A stretch of DNA of 64,000 nt, taken from the NCBI GenBank assembly GCA_012517475.1, contig JAAYUV010000114.1, forward strand, positions 1 to 64,000, read 5' to 3'. Position 1 is the first letter of the stretch; the number at the start of each line of letters is the position of its first letter. The translations under genes were made by a program, and so were the position numbers. This document shows, one piece after another, positions 437 through 13,794 of this stretch. Source of the DNA: Peptococcaceae bacterium. GTDB lineage: Bacteria > Bacillota > Desulfitobacteriia > Desulfitobacteriales > Syntrophobotulaceae. Under the pieces are notes generated by a model, which saw only the letters and a program-made list of their open reading frames with translations, had not been told where the DNA came from and did no database searches.

Positions 437-1954
437 GTGAAAATAATACTGGATAGGGAGACTAATAAACCTTTATATTTTCAAATCTTTGAACAAATAC
501 GCCGGCAAATCCTATCCGGCGAGCTTTTACCCGGATATCTCCTGCCGCCGGAAAGGAAACTGGCTGAAAGTCTGGACGTGAATAGAACAACCGTATTAAA
601 CGCTTACCGGGAATTAAAAGCTGAAGGTTTGGTAGGATCCCAGGTAGGCAAGGGGACAATTGTTCTTTCTTATCCCGATCAGGAAATCAAGCCGGATTAC
701 ATTCTTATGCAGGAACCTACGTGGAATCAGCTATTCAGCCAATACTCCAATAAATTTGATTCTTATCTTGTAAAGGACTTGCTTACTTTGGCAAACAGAA
801 AAGATGTTATTTCTTTTGCCACCGGAATTGCTTCCCCTGAAACCGGTCCGATTCAAGTGCTCCGTGGAATTGAGCAGGAATTGGTTGAAAAGAAGAACTA
901 CAGGGCTTTGCTTCATACCCCGACGGAAGGCTTTACCTCTTTGCGGGAAGCCATATGCAACGTAATGCATAAAAGAGGCGTATATTGCGATTTTGAGGAA
1001 GTCATGCTCCTGTCAGGCTCTCAACAGGGAATTGATTTGGCTGCACGGGTTATTCTTGATCCCGGAGATATTGTTGTCGTAGAAGATCCTTCTTTTTTCC
1101 CGGCCATCCAAGCTTTTAAAACGATCGGGGCAAGGGTCATGGGCGTTCCGGTTGATGATCAAGGGATGAGGATAGATCTCCTTGAACAGCTCCTTCAAAG
1201 ATATAGACCCAAGCTGATCTATACTGTCCCAACCTATCAGAATCCTACCGGAACCGAAATGGCCTTGGAAAGAAGAAAAAAGCTCATCGAACTTGCTTAC
1301 CGTTACAAAGTCCTCATCCTGGAGGATGATGCATACGGCGATCTTTGCTATGATGGTTATCCGCTCCCGCTGCTGAAATCCATGGATAATGAAGGTTATG
1401 TCATCTACCTGAGTACTTTTTCCAAGAGTGTTTATCCGGGCTTGCGGTTAGGCTGGATGACTGCCCATAAAAAAGTGGTCAAAAGGTGTTCGGCTGTTAA
1501 ACAAATTAATGATTTGCATTCCAATAGTCTTTCCCAGTGGATTATCGAAAGGTTCATTGTAAGCGGAGAATATGAGGCGCATATTTCTAAAGTGATAGAC
1601 GAATACCGGTTGAGAAGAAATGCTATGTACGATGCGCTCATGCAATTTGCTCCTGCCGGTATGAGCTGGAACTCACCCAGAGGCGGATATTATATCTGGT
1701 GCAAACTTCCTGAGCATGTGCACGCTTCCAGGCTCATGGTCAAAGCTGCGGAATATAAGATTGTTTTTGTACCGGGAATGCCCTTTTTCACTTCAGACCA
1801 GGGAGAAAATTATATTCGCTTAAATTTCACCTATGCACCCCTCCAAGATATCCGGGAAGGTGTCAAACGGCTGTGCCAGGCGGTTAACGATTTGGTGAAA
1901 GGTTCCGGCAGGGAGGAAAGGGATAAGGAATTGGAAATCATTCCTATCGTTTAA
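437..1954 (+). CDS. MocR/PdxR-type GntR-family regulator with aminotransferase domain
   Basis: A 505-aa fusion of an N-terminal GntR winged helix (about residues 10-75) and a class I PLP aminotransferase domain (about 120-490). The PLP lysine is K330 in a STFSK motif, and the NPTG and EDDAY motifs that bind the cofactor are present. MocR proteins use the aminotransferase fold to sense PLP or an amino acid and regulate adjacent metabolic genes. The GTG start at 437 is chosen because AAAGGAG sits 8 nt upstream. The next gene, an aminotransferase, follows after 21 bp on the same strand and is the likely target or partner. The regulated pathway cannot be told from sequence. Confidence 0.85.
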   Translation: MKIILDRETNKPLYFQIFEQIRRQILSGELLPGYLLPPERKLAESLDVNRTTVLNAYRELKAEGLVGSQVGKGTIVLSYPDQEIKPDYILMQEPTWNQLFSQYSNKFDSYLVKDLLTLANRKDVISFATGIASPETGPIQVLRGIEQELVEKKNYRALLHTPTEGFTSLREAICNVMHKRGVYCDFEEVMLLSGSQQGIDLAARVILDPGDIVVVEDPSFFPAIQAFKTIGARVMGVPVDDQGMRIDLLEQLLQRYRPKLIYTVPTYQNPTGTEMALERRKKLIELAYRYKVLILEDDAYGDLCYDGYPLPLLKSMDNEGYVIYLSTFSKSVYPGLRLGWMTAHKKVVKRCSAVKQINDLHSNSLSQWIIERFIVSGEYEAHISKVIDEYRLRRNAMYDALMQFAPAGMSWNSPRGGYYIWCKLPEHVHASRLMVKAAEYKIVFVPGMPFFTSDQGENYIRLNFTYAPLQDIREGVKRLCQAVNDLVKGSGREERDKELEIIPIV

Positions 1955-1975
1955 AAACAAATTGAAGGTGATTGT

Positions 1976-3160
1976 ATGGAATTTAATTTTGCCAACAGGA
2001 TTTCTTATTTAACGGCTTCAGAAATCAGAGAAATCTTAAAGATTACCGAACAACGGGAAATTATATCTTTTGCAGGCGGTTTACCCGCACCTGAGCTTTT
2101 CCCGGTTGAGGAAATAAAAAAAGTAAGTCAGATTGTTTTGGAAGAGGAAGGTACAAAGGTTTTGCAATATTCAACTACTGAAGGCTACCTGCCTTTAAGG
2201 GAGTGGATTGCAGACAGGATGAACTCCAGACTGGGGACAAAACTGCTGCCCGACCACATCATTTTAACCCACGGCTCTCAACAGGGACTCGATCTTTCAG
2301 GAAAGGTGTTCCTGGACGAAGGGGATATTGTCTTATGTGAAAGTCCTACGTATCTTGCTGCGATTAGTGCTTTTAAGGCTTATGGCTGCAGGTTCCTGGA
2401 AGTACCGACTGATGATGACGGCATGCTTCCTGATGAATTGGAATATATCCTTGAAAATACCCCCCGCGTGAAAATGATTTATGTTATTCCGGATTTTCAA
2501 AACCCGACCGGCCGGACCTGGAGCCTGGATAGAAGGAAAAAGCTCGTTGATCTTGCTATGAAACACAAAGTAATGGTTATAGAAGATAATCCTTATGGAG
2601 AACTCCGGTTTGAGGGAGAAACTCTGCCTTCATTCCAATCGTTTGATCAAACCGGGTGCGTAGTTTTCCTGGGGACATTCTCTAAAATATTTTGTCCGGG
2701 ATACCGGATCGGTTGGGTTGCCGGCGATCCGAGAGTGATTGAGAAATATGCCATTGTGAAACAAGCAACCGATTTGCAGTGTAATACCCTGGCCCAAAGA
2801 GAAATAGCCAAATTTCTCGAAATGTATAATATTGAAGACCATATTGATAAAATACGAGAAGTATACAGGAAACGCCGGGATCTGACCGTTCACACCATGG
2901 AATCCGAATTTCCGGCAGGGGTTACTTTTACCAGGCCTCAGGGAGGACTGTTTTCCTGGGTTGAGCTGCCCGCTCAAGTCAATGCCAGAGATGTACTGGA
3001 AAGAAGTCTGGAAAGAAATGTTGCCTTTGTTCCGGGCGGTCCCTTTTTCCCAAACGGCAGCAACGAAAACACGCTGAGAATTAACTTTTCCAATATGCCC
3101 GAGGACAGAATTGTAATCGGACTTCACTCTCTGGCAGAAGTATTGCGCGAATTTATCTAA
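1976..3160 (+). CDS. PLP-dependent class I aminotransferase (2-aminoadipate/aromatic type)
   Basis: A 394-aa stand-alone fold-type I aminotransferase of the LysN/AroH-like subgroup. The Schiff-base lysine is K237 (GTFSK), the NPTG motif is near 177, D204 (IEDNPYG) should contact the PLP ring nitrogen, and the substrate-carboxylate arginine lies in a TLRINFS motif near the C-terminus. It transaminates an amino acid with 2-oxoglutarate or a similar keto acid in the cytoplasm. It resembles the catalytic half of the MocR protein before it, so the pair may have arisen by duplication plus gain of a DNA-binding domain. It is translated from an AAGGTG site 5 nt before ATG. Substrate unknown. Confidence 0.85.
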   Translation: MEFNFANRISYLTASEIREILKITEQREIISFAGGLPAPELFPVEEIKKVSQIVLEEEGTKVLQYSTTEGYLPLREWIADRMNSRLGTKLLPDHIILTHGSQQGLDLSGKVFLDEGDIVLCESPTYLAAISAFKAYGCRFLEVPTDDDGMLPDELEYILENTPRVKMIYVIPDFQNPTGRTWSLDRRKKLVDLAMKHKVMVIEDNPYGELRFEGETLPSFQSFDQTGCVVFLGTFSKIFCPGYRIGWVAGDPRVIEKYAIVKQATDLQCNTLAQREIAKFLEMYNIEDHIDKIREVYRKRRDLTVHTMESEFPAGVTFTRPQGGLFSWVELPAQVNARDVLERSLERNVAFVPGGPFFPNGSNENTLRINFSNMPEDRIVIGLHSLAEVLREFI

Positions 3161-3474: not shown

Positions 3475-4440
3475 ATGAAGAGAATAGTTTTTTTGTTATT
3501 TCTATTATTAATCATAGTGAGTTCTATTACCGCGGGTACGCTTGCCATGTACACTGTTTCCATAGACACCCTGGCTGAAGGCAGTACCGTTGCAAAAGAA
3601 TTTATATTTACCGGTGAGGGAACCGATTCTTTTCAGCAGGGAATAAAAATCGCGCCATCCGAAACCGTAGACTGGCAATTCAAAATAAAAAATTACAAAA
3701 ACCAGGTTATAACCGAAACCGATTTATACTATAAGCTTACGTTTCAGGTGTCTGCTTCTGCAGGCAAGCAGGCAATCTCGCCATTAACTGTCAGCGTTAA
3801 GGATCTCAACGGGAATGTCCTCAACAGAGTCACAGGAACGGGTACGTTTGACATCCTTGGAACTTTTCCGCTTTCGTCCGTCGGACAGGAAAAAGACTTT
3901 ATGGTTGAAATACAATGGCCGGACAGCGGAAACTCCGATATCAACTACGCCGGCAATCGTTTCGGAACCACGATCAACGTCGCTGCTATCGCCTCACAAG
4001 TCCCTCTTAGCGGTTCCGGCTCGGGCAATCCTCCACAGCAAAAGCCCGTCAGCGTAAAGTATGAAACAACAGCTCCGTGGCAAAACGGGCAAGGCAACAA
4101 TTACCAGTATGCGTATAAAATCACGATTACCAACAATTCCAGCGAACCGATCAATAATTGGAACATTGCTCTTTCACTGCAAAATGATAAGCTGACGGAC
4201 GTTTGGAGCAACGCCAAACTCGTTTCTTATACTCCGCCGGGAAATTATTTATTTATTAATCCCGGTTATAACAATCAGTCCACTGACAATATTCTGCCTG
4301 GGGAGAGCGTATCATTCGGGGGGCCTGCTAAGGGAAGGGGAACCGAAGCTATACAAAATGTCAGTGTAGGAGGAAGCAACACAAATTCTATTACCAATGT
4401 GGATTTAACCTGTGAATTTGGCAAGGCATCACTGAACTGA
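3475..4440 (+). CDS. TasA/camelysin-like secreted protein with C-terminal CBM2-like domain
   Basis: 321 aa. Residues 1-26 form a SipW-dependent type leader: a short basic start, a hydrophobic core, then GTLAMYT. Residues about 27-175 match the mature part of the 176-aa paralogue encoded at 4726. A Gly/Ser/Pro linker (178-191) leads to a domain (191-285) with the beta-sandwich pattern of CBM2 cellulose-binding modules: W202, NNW (227-229), VW (243-244) and a final PGESVSFGG. The inferred role is a fibre-forming or fibre-associated matrix protein that also binds polysaccharide. A SipW-type peptidase encoded 2.6 kb downstream is the natural processing enzyme. The start follows AGAGGTG. The CBM2 call is by pattern only. 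Confidence 0.75.
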   Translation: MKRIVFLLFLLLIIVSSITAGTLAMYTVSIDTLAEGSTVAKEFIFTGEGTDSFQQGIKIAPSETVDWQFKIKNYKNQVITETDLYYKLTFQVSASAGKQAISPLTVSVKDLNGNVLNRVTGTGTFDILGTFPLSSVGQEKDFMVEIQWPDSGNSDINYAGNRFGTTINVAAIASQVPLSGSGSGNPPQQKPVSVKYETTAPWQNGQGNNYQYAYKITITNNSSEPINNWNIALSLQNDKLTDVWSNAKLVSYTPPGNYLFINPGYNNQSTDNILPGESVSFGGPAKGRGTEAIQNVSVGGSNTNSITNVDLTCEFGKASLN

Positions 4441-4725: not shown

Positions 4726-5256
4726 ATGAAAAAAATATTAGTTCTTATTGCTCTGGTTCTGATTTTATCTACATCCGTTATTGCCGGAACCCTGGCTATG
4801 TATACGACCAAGATTGATAACCTCGCTGAGGGCAGTGCGATTGCAAAAGAATTCATCCTCTTAAAGGGCGGCACCGATACATTTACCAAGAATGTTAAAA
4901 TTGCCCCGGGCGAAACGGTAAACTGGCAGTTTAGTGTAAAAAACTATAACGGCACAGTTGTAAGCGAAACTGCCATGGACCTGAATTGCAGTATCAATGT
5001 AACAGCGACAGACGGTAAAAGCGCGATTGCCCCGCTTGTGGTCACCGTTAAGAATTCTGCCGGTACAACGGTAGGAACTGTTACAACGAGCGGCCAAATT
5101 CAATTTGCCGACGAATTTGCGCTGAATGCCAGCGGTCAGGAGAAAACATATACCGTATCTGTCAACTGGCCGGGCAACGGCACCAACGACGCCAGTTATG
5201 CAGGCGCCAATTACGGGACCGATGTCAAGGTATCGGTAACCGGTACGCAGAAATAA
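4726..5256 (+). CDS. TasA/camelysin-like secreted protein, SipW-dependent leader
   Basis: 176 aa. The leader (residues 1-26, ending in GTLAMYT) and the whole mature region parallel residues 1-175 of the CBM-bearing paralogue at 3475. Shared segments include NLAEGS, VAKEF-like, APGETV.WQF and a C-terminal NYGT.V.V strand. The mature domain is beta-rich with few charged clusters, as in TasA and camelysin, which build biofilm fibres or sit on the cell surface. It lacks the CBM domain, so it is the natural candidate for the main fibre subunit, with the longer protein as a minor, glycan-binding one; that is an inference. A strong terminator follows 25 bp later. Confidence 0.75.
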   Translation: MKKILVLIALVLILSTSVIAGTLAMYTTKIDNLAEGSAIAKEFILLKGGTDTFTKNVKIAPGETVNWQFSVKNYNGTVVSETAMDLNCSINVTATDGKSAIAPLVVTVKNSAGTTVGTVTTSGQIQFADEFALNASGQEKTYTVSVNWPGNGTNDASYAGANYGTDVKVSVTGTQK

Positions 5257-5281
5257 ATCATAAATACCATTGCTCAACCAG

Positions 5282-5316
5282 AAGGGGTTTGATCTGCAGC
5301 GATCAAGCCCTTTTTT
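5282..5316 (+). terminator. Strong intrinsic terminator of the TasA-like genes
   Basis: AAGGGGTTTGATC pairs with GATCAAGCCCTT around a 6-nt loop and is followed by TTTTTT. It closes the transcript carrying the three SipW-leader genes. Confidence 0.85.
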
Positions 5317-5615: not shown

Positions 5616-5694
5616 CTTAGTATTTAGCCACCATATTTTATTCAAAATATGGTATATAATTACTATAAGAGAAGATGTTATGAGAGGTATTGAT

Positions 5695-6237
5695 ATGCAA
5701 AAAGAAAGAGTCCAAATGGAATCAGGGGAGGATTTACTTTCAATTAAGATATTCTCCAGAAAGAGTTTATTGCGATCAGTATTTCTTTATTTTTCTTTAG
5801 GACTTTGTATTTTTTTTATAATTTTTTCTTTTAATGCCTTTCAGATATATTCTTTGCCTCAAGTCTTATTAATTTTTTTACTCATTATACTTGCTCTTTG
5901 CGGGCTAAAAATATTAGATATGATAAAATGGAACATTAATGGGAAGGAAGTAATAACACTTTCTTCTGAAAAATTGAAAATCGAGAAAAGGTCACTAATA
6001 CGCAATAATAAGGAGTATTTATTAGAGCAAATAAAGAATATAAGAATCGAGCCGGAAAGTGATTCTGTTCTTCGATGGTATACAACTGGAGAATTTGTTA
6101 CATTTGTTACCGCAATATTAACTGCACCGGAAGGCTTAATAAAATTTGATTATGGAAGAAAGACAATAAGATTTGCATATGACATTAGAGAAGATGAGGC
6201 ATTAAAAATTATAGAAGAAATCAAAAAACGAATTTGA
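5695..6237 (+). CDS. Membrane-anchored hypothetical protein with two TM helices and a PH-like C-terminal region
   Basis: 180 aa from the ATG at 5695, which has GAGAGG 7 nt upstream; an in-frame ATG at 5602 would add 31 residues without an RBS and is rejected. Two hydrophobic helices (about 28-50 and 54-75) form a hairpin. They are followed by a soluble beta-rich region with alternating charged strands (NGKEVITLSSEKLKIEKR and later), ending in an acidic-basic helix. This order resembles small bacterial PH-like membrane proteins of unknown function. The gene is more AT-rich than its neighbours and stands alone between hairpins, so it may have been acquired separately. No function is assigned. 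Confidence 0.6.
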   Translation: MQKERVQMESGEDLLSIKIFSRKSLLRSVFLYFSLGLCIFFIIFSFNAFQIYSLPQVLLIFLLIILALCGLKILDMIKWNINGKEVITLSSEKLKIEKRSLIRNNKEYLLEQIKNIRIEPESDSVLRWYTTGEFVTFVTAILTAPEGLIKFDYGRKTIRFAYDIREDEALKIIEEIKKRI

Positions 6238-7014: not shown

Positions 7015-7587
7015 ATGCCGTTAGCCAAGTATACTACTCAGGAACAAATTGATGAAATGCGCCGGGAAATACAGCGGGAGAAAGAAAAGTTTTTGAAGCA
7101 TTCCAAAAATCCCGGCAGCAGAAACTGGACAAGGCCCAAAGCAAAGCCAAAGCAAATTGGAAAAGTGGCAATAAAGATAACCGGATGGATGATCTTTATT
7201 GCCATTGTTGGACTGCTGGCATCGGCCATTGTCTCCATTAATATCGCGAAGAGCAGGGGAGAAGTCCCCAATTTTTTGGGTTTACAGGTTTTTTCCGTTG
7301 AATCGGGCAGTATGGAACCTACCTTAAATACAGGATCTATGATTATAAGCCGGATGCCAAAAGACCCTCAACGCCTTAAAGTAAATCAGATCGTAACTTT
7401 CAGGACATTATCCGGGTTAATTGTTACCCATCGGATTATTGAAGTCGTCACCACTTCAGACGGGGGAATCGCTTACCGAACAAAAGGGGATAATCCGATC
7501 AATTCACCAGACCAGGAATTGCTCTCTCCGGATCGGATTATCGGTGTTTTTATCGCAAAAATACCGTTTACCTCACATCAAACTTAG
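7015..7587 (+). CDS. sipW: SipW-type (ER-type) signal peptidase I
   Basis: 190 aa. A 50-residue, highly charged cytoplasmic extension (helical, rich in E, K and R) precedes one TM helix (about 55-78). The extracytoplasmic catalytic domain follows: nucleophile S99 in SGSMEP, H139 in VTHRII (the ER-type His in place of Lys), and D159 in TKGDN. SipW peptidases process TasA-like matrix proteins, and three leaders of that type are encoded at 3475-5256. Two oddities stand out. The N-terminal extension is not usual for SipW. The C-terminus stops at AKIPFTSHQT, where family members normally continue into a second TM helix; the stop codon lies in the left arm of the inverted repeat at 7584. It should still be catalytically complete. 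Confidence 0.85.
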   Translation: MPLAKYTTQEQIDEMRREIQREKEKFLKHSKNPGSRNWTRPKAKPKQIGKVAIKITGWMIFIAIVGLLASAIVSINIAKSRGEVPNFLGLQVFSVESGSMEPTLNTGSMIISRMPKDPQRLKVNQIVTFRTLSGLIVTHRIIEVVTTSDGGIAYRTKGDNPINSPDQELLSPDRIIGVFIAKIPFTSHQT

Positions 7588-7959
7588 ATATTTGAGCAAT
7601 TACCTGTCACCACGCGCCAATGACTGCTCTTTACCATCTATGGCATCCCGGCACGCGATACTAGCAGATCAATTCCAAAGTAGTGTGATAACAAAAAAGC
7701 TTTCACTAACCCCAGATTAGTCTCTGCAATGGATGGATAGCGTCAAGTGCGTTACGCATTCGTAACGGGATGCGGAGCGCGGCTGTTTCGAAGGCCAAGG
7801 ATGGCCTAGTGCCGCGATGCCATGGATGGCAGTGAGCGGCTCGCCACGGATGGCCGTAAAGGCCTAGCTGGCCTTTACGCTGCCGAAAGCGTCTATCCAT
7901 TACAGAGACCTGCCCGGATAAAACGAATTGATGTCAAATATCTGATGTCAAATATCTAA
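7584..7959. mobile_element. Segment bounded by 12-bp inverted repeats, possible MITE-like insertion
   Basis: TTAGATATTTGA (7584-7595) and its perfect complement TCAAATATCTAA (7948-7959) bound a gene-free stretch. The right arm is preceded by a tandem duplicate, so the 14-mer GATGTCAAATATCT occurs twice (7930-7943 and 7944-7957). The left arm supplies the stop codon of the signal peptidase gene. No target-site duplication was found, so insertion is only one explanation. A hairpin-rich 188-bp repeat lies inside. Confidence 0.35.
7721..7908 (+). repeat. Hairpin-rich 188-bp element with GGA loops (possible CsrA-decoy RNA or REP-type repeat)
   Basis: The ends are a 14-bp inverted repeat with one mismatch (TCTCTGCAATGGAT at 7721, ATCCATTACAGAGA at 7895). 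Inside are AGGCC-AAGGAT-GGCCT (7792-7807), TGCC-ATGGAT-GGCA (7818-7831) nested in GCCGC/GCGGC, GCC-ACGGAT-GGC (7843-7854), GTTACG/CGTAAC (7751-7766) and a perfect CGTAAAGGCC/GGCCTTTACG stem (7855-7879). Three short stems thus present ANGGAT in the loop, the known CsrA/RsmA recognition pattern. GC content is visibly higher than in the surroundings. No protein frame is convincing. It may equally be a chromosomal repeat family. Confidence 0.5.
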
Positions 7960-8008: not shown

Positions 8009-8977
8009 ATGCCTCATATTGCCGAACACGTCGTATTTATGGAAAATGTCTCATCCGGTGAACACTTTTTAACAAGCGGTGGAAGCCCCCGGCGGGTGCT
8101 TTCAAATATCAGTCTGCTCATGAAAAGATCAGAAGCGTGGGGGATCACGGGAACTTCCCTTTATGAGATAAAACTTCTTCTGGAAATCATGGCGAATATC
8201 AGGCCCTATGACAGCGGACGGTGTGTGCTAATTGAGCAGGGAATGCCCAGGCGTAAAAGGGTGATTCTAAGACACGTCTTTTATATCGGAAATTCTCAAA
8301 TGATCTACAATAACATGAACGTTCTTGAATATCTCATGTTTGTAACAGGAAAGTTACAAAGGAATCAAGTTGAACTTCAGGAAGAAATATTTGAATTGCT
8401 GATTGGAATTGGGCTTGGTCCAATTTCTTTAAGTCCCAATAACCTTCTGACAAAGGAAGAAAAGGCTGTGGTCGCGTTGCTTGCAGCCGTATACTCAGGC
8501 AGCATAATCATCGTTTTTAATCTTCCGGAATACGAATTCGATCCGATTCTTTCCGACGCTATTGCCAAGCTATCAAATTTGATCAGAAAAATGGGGAAAA
8601 CTTTAATTCTCGGAACTAAAAGCTGTCTATTAATAGAGAAAGCCTCTACCCATTCCGCAGTGGTTGCGGGAGGAAAAGTCATATACAGCGGTACAGTCGA
8701 AAACTTCCGTTATCAGTACGATCATGTCATCGTCAAGATCAGGGATAAACAAGCCCTTAAAATCAAAGAAAGTCTTACCCCTTTGCTCCCCGGTTATCAA
8801 TTATCAATAAAGAATGACACCCTGATGATCAGCGGCAGCCCGGAGAGAAATGACCCCGAATTGATTTACAAAAAAGTGCTGGAATCGGGTTTTATCCCGG
8901 AACTGATGGAAATGAACCCCAAAACCGTGCAAAATGCCTATGAGGAGCTTATCCTTGAGCATGATTTACCGCAATAG
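8009..8977 (+). CDS. ABC-transporter ATPase homologue lacking catalytic motifs (pseudo-ATPase)
   Basis: 322 aa with the order of an ABC ATPase but degenerate motifs. The P-loop region reads GITGTSLYEI (45-54) in place of GxxGxGKST. The LSGGQ region reads LLTKEEKAVVALLAA. The Walker B region reads IIIVFNLPEYEFDP (167-179), with the catalytic D and E missing. The switch-histidine region reads LGTKS. The spacing, the following C-terminal strands (GGKVIYSGTVENF) and the downstream permease gene all fit an ABC-2 ATPase lineage. It should not hydrolyse ATP and may be a structural or regulatory subunit. The frame is intact and the RBS (AAGGAG, 7996) is good, so it is a maintained gene. It overlaps the permease gene by 17 bp. 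Confidence 0.7.
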   Translation: MPHIAEHVVFMENVSSGEHFLTSGGSPRRVLSNISLLMKRSEAWGITGTSLYEIKLLLEIMANIRPYDSGRCVLIEQGMPRRKRVILRHVFYIGNSQMIYNNMNVLEYLMFVTGKLQRNQVELQEEIFELLIGIGLGPISLSPNNLLTKEEKAVVALLAAVYSGSIIIVFNLPEYEFDPILSDAIAKLSNLIRKMGKTLILGTKSCLLIEKASTHSAVVAGGKVIYSGTVENFRYQYDHVIVKIRDKQALKIKESLTPLLPGYQLSIKNDTLMISGSPERNDPELIYKKVLESGFIPELMEMNPKTVQNAYEELILEHDLPQ

Positions 8978-10364
8978 TTATTTTAAAAAAGAACTTCGCC
9001 AGGCTTATTCGGAGAACCGGACAAGTTCAGGCCGAAAACTTGCTTCCGCACTTTTCCTGGGGCTGATTTCCTTTGCTCTTTTTTTCGTATTCCAGACACT
9101 TCAGGAAAGTGTACTTTCCGAGAGCGTGCCCCAAATTATGCAGCCCAGTTTCTTTTCTACCGTAACCATTTATATTCATGCAGCCTTTGTATTCTATACC
9201 CTGTATTTCATCGTCAATTATGAAACCTTGTTCTTCAGTGAAATCAGGAATAACTCCTGGTATCTGCTGATCCAAATGGGCTACCATCCTGTCATGATGT
9301 TCTTTTCCAAATTACTGGCCCTTTTGTACACCGCTTTTATGATTTATACGGTCGGCTTTCTTGTTACGGTTTTTCTAACCCTTTTTCTGAAATATACCTT
9401 TATCCTTTCCTATTTGCCGTCCCTTTACCTGGCAGGGTTAACCGACATCTTTCTGATCAGCATCCTGTCCATGATATTTTCACTTTTTACTAAAACCATA
9501 GTCAACGCCAGGTACTGGATTTTCTTTTCCGCCGTGATCATTGTCGTGTTGAAAATAATGCTTGGTGAATACACGATTTTATCCAACCGGGTTTCCATGC
9601 AGAACATCAATAACTTGTTTGCTTTAAATTATACTGCTTATATCCCAGCCGCTCTTGTGCTGATGATTCTATTCTGCTTCATCTGCCTGATCAAATCGGA
9701 TAACCTGGCCAAATATTATAATTATAATCCACCGTCTGACACCCCCTTCATTCCCGAAGGGGTTCAAGTCGTTCGTATCGATTCCTCCACGGGTAAACAA
9801 AAAATCCTTTGGAACAAGGACAAAAAAGGATGGCGCGGCAGGGTCTTCGATACGGTATCGACAGCCTTCCTGATTATTTTTATCTGTACGGCGCTGGCTT
9901 TTAATATTTTTATTATCTTGATCAATACGTCTACCCCCGGCCAGGAAGTATCTATCCGGGGGGTGATCCCTTTTGTTTTTCAGTCCAGGACGATGGAACC
10001 TGCCATTCAAATGAATGACCTGACTTTCTTTCGGAAAATCGATCCCTGGTTCCCGGTAGAAGCAGGCCAGATTATTTTATTTGAAGAAAATCATCTTATT
10101 TATGTGGAAAGAGTACTGGTAAAAGCGGGAGAGGAATTAAAAGCTGATATTGACAACTATCCGCCCCTGTCCCAGCCCGGGGCAATGCTCAAAACCGTCC
10201 CCAGGGAAGCCGTACATGGGGTTTATATCGGCAGAAACCGCTGGCTTGGCGCCTTGATTTTCTTTGCCAATACTATTGTGGGGAGAATTCTTTTTTTACT
10301 GGTCCCGGCCGTATTGCTTTTTTATTCCAAACAGATCAATGATTATCTAAAAAAGCAACGGTAA
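8961..10364 (+). CDS. ABC-2-like permease fused to a degenerate SipW-type peptidase domain
   Basis: 467 aa from the ATG at 8961; a TTG at 8955 has better spacing to GAGGAG (8942-8947). Residues about 30-245 hold six hydrophobic helices, as in ABC-2 permeases. After a charged loop (250-295), the rest copies the layout of a SipW-type signal peptidase: a TM helix (about 300-322), then RTMEP (343-347) where the active peptidase has SGSMEP, then a strand ending in IYVERV where VTHRII is expected, and a C-terminal TM helix (about 430-455). The nucleophile Ser is Thr and the catalytic His is Glu, so peptidase activity is unlikely. With the pseudo-ATPase overlapping it, it probably forms an inactive membrane complex that guides substrates to SipW. 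This fusion is not a family I recognise. Confidence 0.7.
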   Translation: MIYRNSYFKKELRQAYSENRTSSGRKLASALFLGLISFALFFVFQTLQESVLSESVPQIMQPSFFSTVTIYIHAAFVFYTLYFIVNYETLFFSEIRNNSWYLLIQMGYHPVMMFFSKLLALLYTAFMIYTVGFLVTVFLTLFLKYTFILSYLPSLYLAGLTDIFLISILSMIFSLFTKTIVNARYWIFFSAVIIVVLKIMLGEYTILSNRVSMQNINNLFALNYTAYIPAALVLMILFCFICLIKSDNLAKYYNYNPPSDTPFIPEGVQVVRIDSSTGKQKILWNKDKKGWRGRVFDTVSTAFLIIFICTALAFNIFIILINTSTPGQEVSIRGVIPFVFQSRTMEPAIQMNDLTFFRKIDPWFPVEAGQIILFEENHLIYVERVLVKAGEELKADIDNYPPLSQPGAMLKTVPREAVHGVYIGRNRWLGALIFFANTIVGRILFLLVPAVLLFYSKQINDYLKKQR

Positions 10365-12207: not shown

Positions 12208-13794
12208 TAAAGGATTTTAACAAAACAAATCGAATTTTTGTTTGAGGTAAAAGATACGGGTATCGGTATAGCAGAAAAAGATACGGGTAAACTGTTTGAA
12301 CCTTTTACCCAAGCAGATTCATCATCAACCAGAAAATATGGCGGAACAGGACTTGGATTAACGATCAGCAAAAAAATCATTGAAATGATGGAAGGAGAAA
12401 TTCTCCTGTCCAGTGAAGCCGGAAAAGGCACTTCTGTTTATTTTTGCGTTACTCTGCTTGTGGAAAATGCTCCAGATGCCCAGGACCTGAAGACAATTCG
12501 TCCAGATGAAATCAACCAGCCCAATGACCAAAACAACGACCTGAAAATACTGCTTGCGGAAGACAATGAAATCAACAGGTTATTCTTTTGCAAATTGCTT
12601 TATACCCTGGGATTTCAATGCGATCTGGCCAATAACGGGGAAGAAGCAGTTAACGCCTGCCAAGACAGATCCTATGATGTAATTTTTATGGACTGTCAAA
12701 TGCCTGTCATGGATGGTTTTGAAGCAACGAAAAAAATCCGTGAAGGGGAGAAAGATGGAAAACACACCGCCATCATCGCGTTAACTGCTTATGCCATGTA
12801 TGGCGATGAAACAAAATGTTTGGATGCCGGAATGGATGCCTATCTTACCAAGCCGGTAAATTCGGATGAATTAAAGAAACTCCTTAACAGCTATAGAAGA
12901 AAAGAATCAACTCCATCCCACTCAGAACAAAGTCTCTATTGCAAAACCGCAAGCGCACTGACGGAAGCATCCGGATTAGACGAAGAATCCTGTAAAGAAT
13001 TGCTCAATGAATTTATTATTCAGTCGGAGCGGCTCATTCAGGAAATCAGGAAAAATCGGGTTGTAAACAACACTCCGCAGGTCCTGAATCTCTTGCACCA
13101 GCTTAAAGGATCTGCCGGCAATCTGAGGGTCAACGAAATAGCCAAATGTGCGGCTGCGGCTGAAGAAGCCATGAAAATATCCCTTCCTCTAAAGGTGAGA
13201 AATGCCATAGACCTGATGAGAAGGAAAGAGGAGATTATCTATTTAAGTTATCGCGATAAATTAAAAGGCCTGTACAACAGAAGGTTTTTTGAAGAGGCGA
13301 TGGACAGAATAGACGATGGTCTTCATCTTCCTGTTTCCATTATCATGGGGGATGTCAATGAATTAAAGCTGGTTAACGATGCCTTTGGCCATAGCAAAGG
13401 GGATGAGCTATTAATCAAAGCTGCTGCCGCCATCCTCAAATCTTGCCGGACAGAGGATATCGTTGTCCGCTGGGGCGGGGATGAATTTGTAATCTTACTC
13501 CCCAGAATGTCAACCCAAAAAGCTGATATGCTGGAATTGGCGGATTATATCCTGTCCCATCACGAGCGCTGGGATGGACATGGTTATCCCAATAATTTAA
13601 AGGGAGAAGAGATTCCAAAAGTCTCCCGTATCATTGCACTGGCTGACAGTTTTGACGCCATGACCAGCAAACGGCCTTACCGTGAACCTTTTACAGAAGA
13701 AGAAGCTTGCCGCGAACTGCAAGCCAACGCCGGTACCCAGTTTGATCCTTATATCACAAAAATATTTCTGGAACAGGTTTTGGCAAAACAATAG
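12208..13794 (+). pseudogene. Remnant of a hybrid histidine kinase with REC, Hpt, GGDEF and partial HD-GYP domains
   Basis: The readable frame opens after a stop at 12208. It has only a TTG (12238) inside the HATPase domain, with no RBS nearby, so the sensor, HisKA and half of the ATPase domain are gone. What remains, numbered from 12238, is HATPase N/G boxes (DTGIG, GTGLGL), REC (about 100-215, phosphoacceptor in FMDCQMPVMDG), Hpt (about 245-320, HQLKGSAGN), GGDEF (about 335-430, WGGDEF intact), then abruptly the second half of an HD-GYP domain (HHERWDGHGYP to the end). The end of GGDEF and the HD half of HD-GYP are missing, as after an in-frame deletion. It once linked phosphorelay to c-di-GMP turnover. 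It might still make a truncated protein. Confidence 0.7.

What the first reader, a model, noticed from the sequence alone, without database searches (positions are those of the whole stretch)
8961..10364. Permease with a degenerate signal peptidase domain
The C-terminal 170 residues keep the SipW layout (TM, catalytic strand, TM) but have RTMEP for SGSMEP and an IYVERV strand where the THR catalytic His should be. The six-helix N-terminal half is ABC-2-like. A pseudo-protease fused to a transporter suggests a substrate-binding role.
Basis: partly seen in the sequence, partly recalled or inferred. Interest (0 to 1): 0.72.

Follow-up and report, generated by a model that had tools for sequence, protein, structure and literature searches.

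The report
Dead peptidase-transporter beside fibre genes
A membrane protein that joins a transporter-like half to a signal peptidase with its cutting residues replaced is always found with an ATPase that has lost its ATP-handling motifs, an intact cutting enzyme and likely fibre proteins, so it probably helps assemble surface fibres rather than cutting or pumping anything.

Summary
Residues ~300-467 of the 467-aa protein (8961-10361) are a complete SipW-type signal peptidase, second membrane helix included: profile match probability 98.6%, E 9.5e-16, and 95.9% against an independently collected SipW set; column-shuffled controls fail. In 18 of 18 aligned orthologues the nucleophile Ser is Thr (T344) and the catalytic His is Glu (E383). 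Six hydrophobic segments precede it; their ABC-2 relationship is only weakly supported. The overlapping upstream gene is an ABC-2-type ATPase lacking Walker A, Walker B, signature and H-loop motifs in 18 of 18. Both belong to a five-gene module: two TasA-like proteins with SipW-type cleavage sites, an intact SipW without its second helix, the dead ATPase and this fusion. In its order the five occur together in the same 17 of 73 genomes; flanks vary. Low dN/dS argues against decay. Best explanation, inferred: a silent membrane platform that holds TasA-like subunits (through the non-cutting cleft) beside SipW and seeds their polymerisation, comparable to streptococcal SipA for pili and TapA for TasA. 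Structure prediction failed (pLDDT 38 and 55), so the fold rests on sequence profiles. No experiment supports the function.

The parts
8961..10364 (+). Fusion protein 'PERM', 467 aa: six hydrophobic segments (27-45, 67-85, 125-143, 155-173, 189-207, 226-244), basic linker (245-302), then a SipW-type pseudo-signal-peptidase (TM 303-321, soluble 322-429, TM 430-448)
9984..10001 (+). Former nucleophile box (residues 342-347, S-R-T-M-E-P): T344 replaces the catalytic Ser, 18 of 18 orthologues
10101..10115 (+). Former T-H-R box (residues 381-385, Y-V-E-R-V): E383 replaces the catalytic His, 18 of 18
10146..10166 (+). DIDxYPP (residues 396-402) at the place of the KGDN box; D396/D398 invariant, but nothing conserved and acidic at the second invariant Asp (D166) of the intact SipW
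8009..8977 (+). Dead ABC-2-type ATPase, 322 aa: no Walker A lysine, Walker B D/E, LSGGQ or H-loop His in 18 of 18; overlaps the PERM gene
7015..7587 (+). Intact SipW-type signal peptidase (SGSMEP / THR / KGDNP...D), one TM only; second C-terminal TM missing in 18 of 18
3475..4440 (+). TasA-like protein 1, 321 aa, with C-terminal CBM2-like domain (Pfam E 1.7e-7)
4726..5256 (+). TasA-like protein 2, 176 aa; signal peptide expected to end GTLA|MY (aromatic at P2')
5280..5315 (+). Terminator-like hairpin with T tail after TasA-like 2; a comparable hairpin (E <= -15 kcal/mol) stands after this gene in 17 of 18 loci

Best explanation
Shown by sequence: the fusion is a SipW-family domain with Ser and His replaced, attached to a six-segment membrane domain; its partner ABC protein has lost its ATPase motifs; both are inherited with an intact SipW and two TasA-like proteins. 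Inferred: the ABC protein and the fusion form a static membrane platform. Subunits come out through Sec, SipW cuts after GTLA, and the pseudo-peptidase cleft, which cannot cut, holds the same region of the chain, i.e. the new N-terminus, which in TasA fibres is the donor strand. It thereby keeps subunits from polymerising early, hands them to the growing fibre and anchors or seeds it, the job TapA does in Bacillus subtilis and SipA does in some way for sortase-built pili. The second helix lost by the module's SipW and kept in the fusion suggests that the two pair in the membrane. The CBM2-like domain of TasA-like 1 would let the fibre bind polysaccharide.
For: Homology of the C-terminal part to complete SipW with invariant T344/E383. 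ATPase motifs lost in 18 of 18, best profile match 1vpl, E 8e-13. Fusion, ATPase, TasA-like pair and module-type SipW present in the same 17 of 73 genomes of the order; the five genes are the only ones conserved in all 18 loci, in one order and strand, with varying flanks. The soluble pseudo-domain is as conserved as the working SipW's (mean pairwise identity 72% against 69%). dN/dS 0.09-0.19 for the fusion in 5 of 5 pairs. TasA-like 2 against a TasA/camelysin set: prob 96.7, without signal peptide prob 90.0. Aromatic residue at P2' (Y26) in 36 of 36 TasA-like proteins; Phe at P2' and Trp at P2 are linked to poor LepB cleavage of SipW-cleaved TasA (PMC10269814, abstract). Terminator after TasA-like 2 in 17 of 18 and ABC/fusion overlap in 18 of 18 fit many fibre subunits per platform. 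Precedents: SipA (PMC4049620, abstract and first part of discussion), TapA (PMC10151520, passages), donor-strand assembly (PMC9674648, abstract).
Against: No experiment; no usable structure (searches with the poor second model inconclusive). ABC-2 nature of the N-terminal half is weakly supported. Nothing shows binding to TasA-like subunits or SipW; even for SipA, binding to pilins could not be detected. The TasA-SipW systems whose passages I read have no such platform, and BsaA polymerises when expressed in E. coli (PMC7395162, passages). In G061, which has only a scar of the module, a classical SipW and TasA-like genes are present, so the platform is not generally needed for TasA.
Confidence: 0.5

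Rival explanations
1. Regulator: the pseudo-peptidase binds SipW or uncut subunits and restrains or reports on processing (inactive relative controlling the active enzyme, or a surface-sensing receptor), with the dead ABC protein passing the state to the cytoplasm.
For: Dead homologues often regulate live ones (general knowledge, recalled); strict co-occurrence with an intact SipW; ABC protein with a conserved C-terminal extension.
Against: No regulator or kinase gene is conserved in the flanks of all loci. Regulation and scaffolding are not exclusive, so this is not strongly excluded.
Confidence: 0.2
2. A transporter after all: the dead ABC protein pairs with a working ATPase encoded elsewhere, as in heterodimeric exporters with one degenerate site, and the fusion extrudes or presents the subunits.
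For: The ABC gene overlaps the fusion gene and its product resembles ABC-2 ATPases (GldA, 7e-10); heterodimeric exporters with a degenerate site are known (recalled).
Against: Walker A, Walker B, signature and H-loop are all lost; no second ATPase or permease is conserved near the module in all loci; Sec-type signal peptides make an extra exporter unnecessary (inference).
Confidence: 0.12
3. The domain is an active protease with a new Thr/Glu/Asp centre.
For: T344, E383 and D398 are invariant in 18 of 18, which mere loss would not require.
Against: No signal peptidase with such a centre is known to me (recalled); the module already holds an intact SipW; SipA's replaced residues proved unimportant.
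Confidence: 0.06
4. Decaying genes without function.
For: Catalytic residues of two enzymes are lost.
Against: Open frames at 51-73% identity in 18 other carriers (17 aligned here plus G519), identical replacements, dN/dS 0.09-0.19 for the fusion. The one decayed copy, G061, looks quite different: a rearranged scar.
Confidence: 0.02

Closest known systems
SipW, ER-type (S26B) signal peptidase of Bacillus
   Same: TM - beta domain - TM layout; profile match over nearly the whole length
   Different: Ser replaced by Thr and His by Glu in 18 of 18; fused to a six-segment membrane domain; far below the NCBIfam cut-off
SipA/LepA of streptococcal pilus clusters (PMC4049620)
   Same: Signal-peptidase homologue without its catalytic residues, encoded with surface-fibre genes, essential for their polymerisation
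   Different: SipA is a Ser-Lys type relative with Asp and Gly replacements, is not fused, and works with a sortase; here SipW-type, Thr/Glu, fused, with a dead ABC protein, and no sortase in the module
TapA-SipW-TasA operon (B. subtilis), sipW-calY (B. cereus), sipW-bsaABCRSD (C. perfringens)
   Same: Dedicated SipW next to TasA-like proteins
   Different: Those have TapA, CapP or further secreted proteins; none of the passages or abstracts read mentions an ABC protein or a second, dead signal peptidase
ABC-2 exporters of the DrrA/GldA kind
   Same: ATPase with ABC-2-type relatives plus a six-segment membrane partner, overlapping genes
   Different: No ATPase motif is left; the membrane partner carries an extracytoplasmic pseudo-peptidase

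Membership tests
SipW / S26B signal peptidases | Sequence homology over the domain, two flanking TM helices | tested here: met
   hhalign prob 98.6, E 9.5e-16; prob 95.9 against L108-L110 alone; shuffles at most 21.7 and 20.8; TMs
SipW / S26B signal peptidases | Catalytic Ser in SGSMEP | tested here: not met
   Thr in 18 of 18, also in G519
SipW / S26B signal peptidases | Catalytic His in THR | tested here: not met
   Glu in 18 of 18, also in G519
SipW / S26B signal peptidases | Catalytic Asp in the KGDN...D box | tested here: inconclusive
   Intact SipWs of the module keep two Asp (D159, D166); the fusion keeps D396/D398 but has Q, L or E at the second place; alignment of this stretch is uncertain
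SipW / S26B signal peptidases | Signal peptide cleavage | not testable with these tools
   needs an assay
ABC-2 type exporter | Six-TM permease related to ABC2_membrane families | tested here: inconclusive
   six segments; hhalign prob 25, score 31.7 against shuffles at most 20.8 and two LIV permeases 17.7 and 16.7; no Pfam ABC2 hit in 18 of 18
ABC-2 type exporter | ATPase with Walker A, Walker B, signature, H-loop | tested here: not met
   none kept in 18 of 18
TasA-SipW fibre system | Intact SipW-type peptidase encoded with TasA-like proteins | tested here: met
   18 of 18 loci; TasA-like 2 against PF12389 set prob 96.7, mature part prob 90.0. No Pfam or NCBIfam TasA model hits directly
TasA-SipW fibre system | SipW-type cleavage site with aromatic P2' | tested here: met
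   Y26 in 36 of 36; cleavage itself not shown
TasA-SipW fibre system | Fibres by donor-strand exchange | not testable with these tools
   needs microscopy
SipA/LepA pilus chaperones | Signal-peptidase homologue without catalytic residues | tested here: met
   inactivity is inferred from residues
SipA/LepA pilus chaperones | Works with a sortase on LPXTG-type pilins | tested here: not met
   the only genes common to 18 of 18 loci are the five described, none a sortase

The most novel reading that the evidence does not exclude
A new kind of fibre-assembly machine: an ABC exporter and a signal peptidase that have both lost catalysis and been merged into one static membrane port whose non-cutting cleft loads donor strands into TasA-like fibres, working as a pair with a one-helix SipW.
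Probability: 0.3. Interest if true: 0.85.

Novelty: new variant of a known kind. Interest (0 to 1): 0.7.

Why it matters
How TasA-type fibres are started and anchored at the cell surface is not settled outside Bacillus, where TapA does part of it. This module offers a dedicated, conserved candidate in anaerobic Bacillota whose module holds no TapA-like gene that I recognised. It would also be a natural case of two enzymes turned into scaffold parts of one machine, and a second, independent instance (after SipA) of a dead signal peptidase tied to surface-fibre genes, which makes the idea that such clefts serve as chaperones testable.

Tried and rejected
Foldseek with the second model: no match at E <= 0.001; LexA first (E 0.034), SipA fourth (E 0.066), among unrelated folds. 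VIA-align: signal peptidases 3s04, 4wvg and 9nlo are in the 50 rows (Z 6.0-6.2), tied with or below Tudor domains (best Z 7.1). I count both as inconclusive, and the input alignment held SipW rows.

The first hhalign against classical SipW contained one wrongly extracted frame (L025); repeated without it. Five of the eight in that set (L021-L024, L047) had been brought in by similarity to the fusion, so the three SipWs found through the SipW profile (L108-L110) were tested apart. Decay was rejected by dN/dS; some dS values are near saturation and one of 25 could not be computed. ABC-2 permeases singly and as a short set gave nothing clearly above controls. From the TasA/camelysin set two of twelve extracted frames (L120, L121) were dropped as wrong frames or unrelated before the comparison; single members of the set mostly gave weak scores (best L113, prob 91.5), so the result rests on the pooled profile. 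Mobile element: no match among 72,556 plasmid and 50,697 phage records. A duplication of the module's own SipW is not favoured: the domain matches classical SipWs better (score 101.8; 59.8 for L108-L110) than its neighbour (40.7), though the larger set was partly chosen by likeness.

Search for earlier descriptions: (search listings and abstract starts only; one search listed 25 of 57 papers) showed no paper on this fusion or module; the library holds open-licence papers only, so this is not proof. A paper search for the SEC11A catalytic residues found nothing, so catalytic roles are recalled.

Full report
The finding. The ORF at 8961-10364 (467 aa) starts inside the end of the upstream ABC gene (8009-8977). 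The genome is a 3.68 Mb draft (G000); its nearest named relative with the gene is Candidatus Dichloromethanomonas elyunquensis (L001, 72% identity; Peptococcaceae in NCBI taxonomy).

The C-terminal domain. Pfam gives only a sub-threshold Peptidase_S26 hit (E 0.11). NCBIfam's SipW model matches 18 of 18 orthologues, best E 9.7e-12, window protein 1.4e-5 and 24.7 bits against a cut-off of 190. Profile-profile comparison of residues 290-467 with the module's own SipWs gives prob 83.0, score 40.7 (60 column shuffles at most 22.7; N-terminal half 16.1); with eight intact SipWs from other places prob 98.6, E 9.5e-16, score 101.8 over 152 columns, including the second membrane helix. Five of these eight had come in through likeness to the fusion; with only the three found by the SipW profile the result is prob 95.9, E 5.8e-9, score 59.8, shuffles at most 20.8. 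So it is a whole SipW. In 18 of 18 sequences the box is S/T-x-T-M-E/Q-P with T344 at the nucleophile position, and E383-R384 where H-R of T-H-R stands; D396 and D398 are invariant, while the second Asp that the intact SipWs keep has no conserved counterpart (placement of this last stretch is uncertain). Roles of Ser, His and Asp in SipW are recalled knowledge.

The N-terminal half. Family-mean hydropathy shows six segments, then a basic linker (10 K+R in 58 residues) and two more segments; with the N-terminus inside, the peptidase-like part lies outside, like a real signal peptidase (orientation inferred). Against 23 ABC-2 permeases: prob 25, score 31.7, aligned over residues 90-188, shuffles at most 20.8, reversed 17.1, two LIV permeases 17.7 and 16.7. 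No Pfam ABC2 model hits. I call it ABC-2-like, weakly supported.

The partner. The 322-aa ABC protein matches ABC-2-type ATPases (GldA 7e-10; family profile to 1vpl 8e-13), yet 18 of 18 sequences lack the Walker A GKS/T, have Asn followed by a hydrophobic residue for the Walker B Asp-Glu, Glu-Glu where the signature glycine and its neighbour are expected, and no H-loop His (motif placement by eye on the alignment to relatives). Only 3 of 18 reach Pfam ABC_tran at E 0.1.

The module. In 18 of 18 loci the order is TasA-like 1, TasA-like 2, SipW, ABC, fusion, same strand, while no other gene is conserved in the flanks of all (L001 and G001 are the same contig and counted once); L040 and L041 have a three-gene insert between the TasA-like pair and SipW, the window an extra gene. 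A nineteenth carrier, G519 from another family, has SipW-ABC-fusion together with the same replacements, and a TasA-like gene in reverse on the same 5-kb contig. Among 73 genomes of the order, a full-length fusion is in 17 (19 matches, of which G061 is a fragment and G003 a short weak match with a stop), the ABC protein in 17 (E <= 1e-40), two TasA-like copies in 17, the module-type SipW (over 260 bits; next best 89) in 17: the same 17 genomes. Relatedness makes these not independent, but carriers are scattered over 5 of 22 genera, and the gene tree does not follow the families. Outside the order: one more carrier (G090) among 398 genomes sampled from the phylum and G519 among 119 searched as relatives of G090. 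G061 keeps a rearranged scar.

The TasA-like proteins. Neither Pfam nor NCBIfam nor PDB profiles name their N-terminal domain; TasA-like 1 carries a CBM2-like domain (E 1.7e-7). Against a pooled TasA/camelysin (PF12389) set of ten, TasA-like 2 gives prob 96.7, E 3.1e-10 (score 67.4, shuffles at most 22.9) and without its signal peptide prob 90.0 (score 44.0, shuffles at most 22.9). All 36 have Tyr two residues after the expected cut. The abstract of PMC10269814 states that TasA has Phe at this place and is cleaved by SipW, and that the Trp at P2 blocks LepB; the TasA-like proteins have Leu at P2.

Selection and expression. dN/dS of the fusion is 0.09-0.19 in 5 of 5 pairs, SipW 0.15-0.22, ABC 0.09-0.43. 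The pseudo-domain's soluble part has 72% mean pairwise identity, against 69% for the intact SipW's and 68% for the fusion's N-terminal half. A hairpin with T tail (E <= -15 kcal/mol) follows TasA-like 2 in 17 of 18 loci, against 2 of 90 shuffles and 0 of 18 after TasA-like 1; ABC and fusion genes overlap by 11-26 bases in 18 of 18. This fits plentiful fibre subunits and a scarce, 1:1 membrane complex (inference).

Mechanism (inferred). With both enzymes silent, a scaffold is the economical reading. In TasA fibres each subunit donates a strand to the next (PMC9674648, abstract), the N-terminal one, and TapA, whose first residues are nearly identical to TasA's, starts fibres with its N-terminus (PMC10151520, passages). 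A signal-peptidase cleft binds the chain next to this part; a cleft that cannot cut could hold it. SipA is the precedent: cleft kept, catalysis lost, essential for pilus polymerisation, although binding could not be detected (PMC4049620, abstract and discussion part 1). The SipW here has lost the second helix that the fusion kept, which suggests pairing. None of these steps is shown.

Verdict. The fold still needs a structure, and the function an experiment.

Noticed in passing
window 7584-7959: 376-base insert between SipW and ABC genes with 12-nt perfect terminal inverted repeats, beginning at the SipW stop codon; its core has 49 further matching stretches in the genome, like a MITE or REP-type repeat. 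The other 17 loci have 20-88 bases between these genes.
   Followed up: partly
L043:10002-10273 (G061): Rearranged scar with pieces of the fusion and ABC genes in opposite orientations; this genome instead has a classical SipW and TasA-like genes on another contig.
   Followed up: partly
window 12238-13794: ORF reading as kinase end, receiver, Hpt, GGDEF and HD-GYP pieces with parts seemingly missing: possibly a decayed or rearranged signalling gene (read by eye).
   Followed up: no
window 5692-6234: Small membrane protein gene between TasA-like 2 and SipW, not found in the other loci fetched; only weak STM3941-family and DUF2244 hits.
   Followed up: no
window 437-3160: Two neighbouring paralogous aminotransferase-type genes (38% identity), the first with a GntR/MocR-like front part (read by eye).
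   Followed up: no
L040 and L041: Three reverse-strand genes sit between the TasA-like pair and SipW in both genomes of genus g16, so the pair and the membrane trio can be separated.
   Followed up: no
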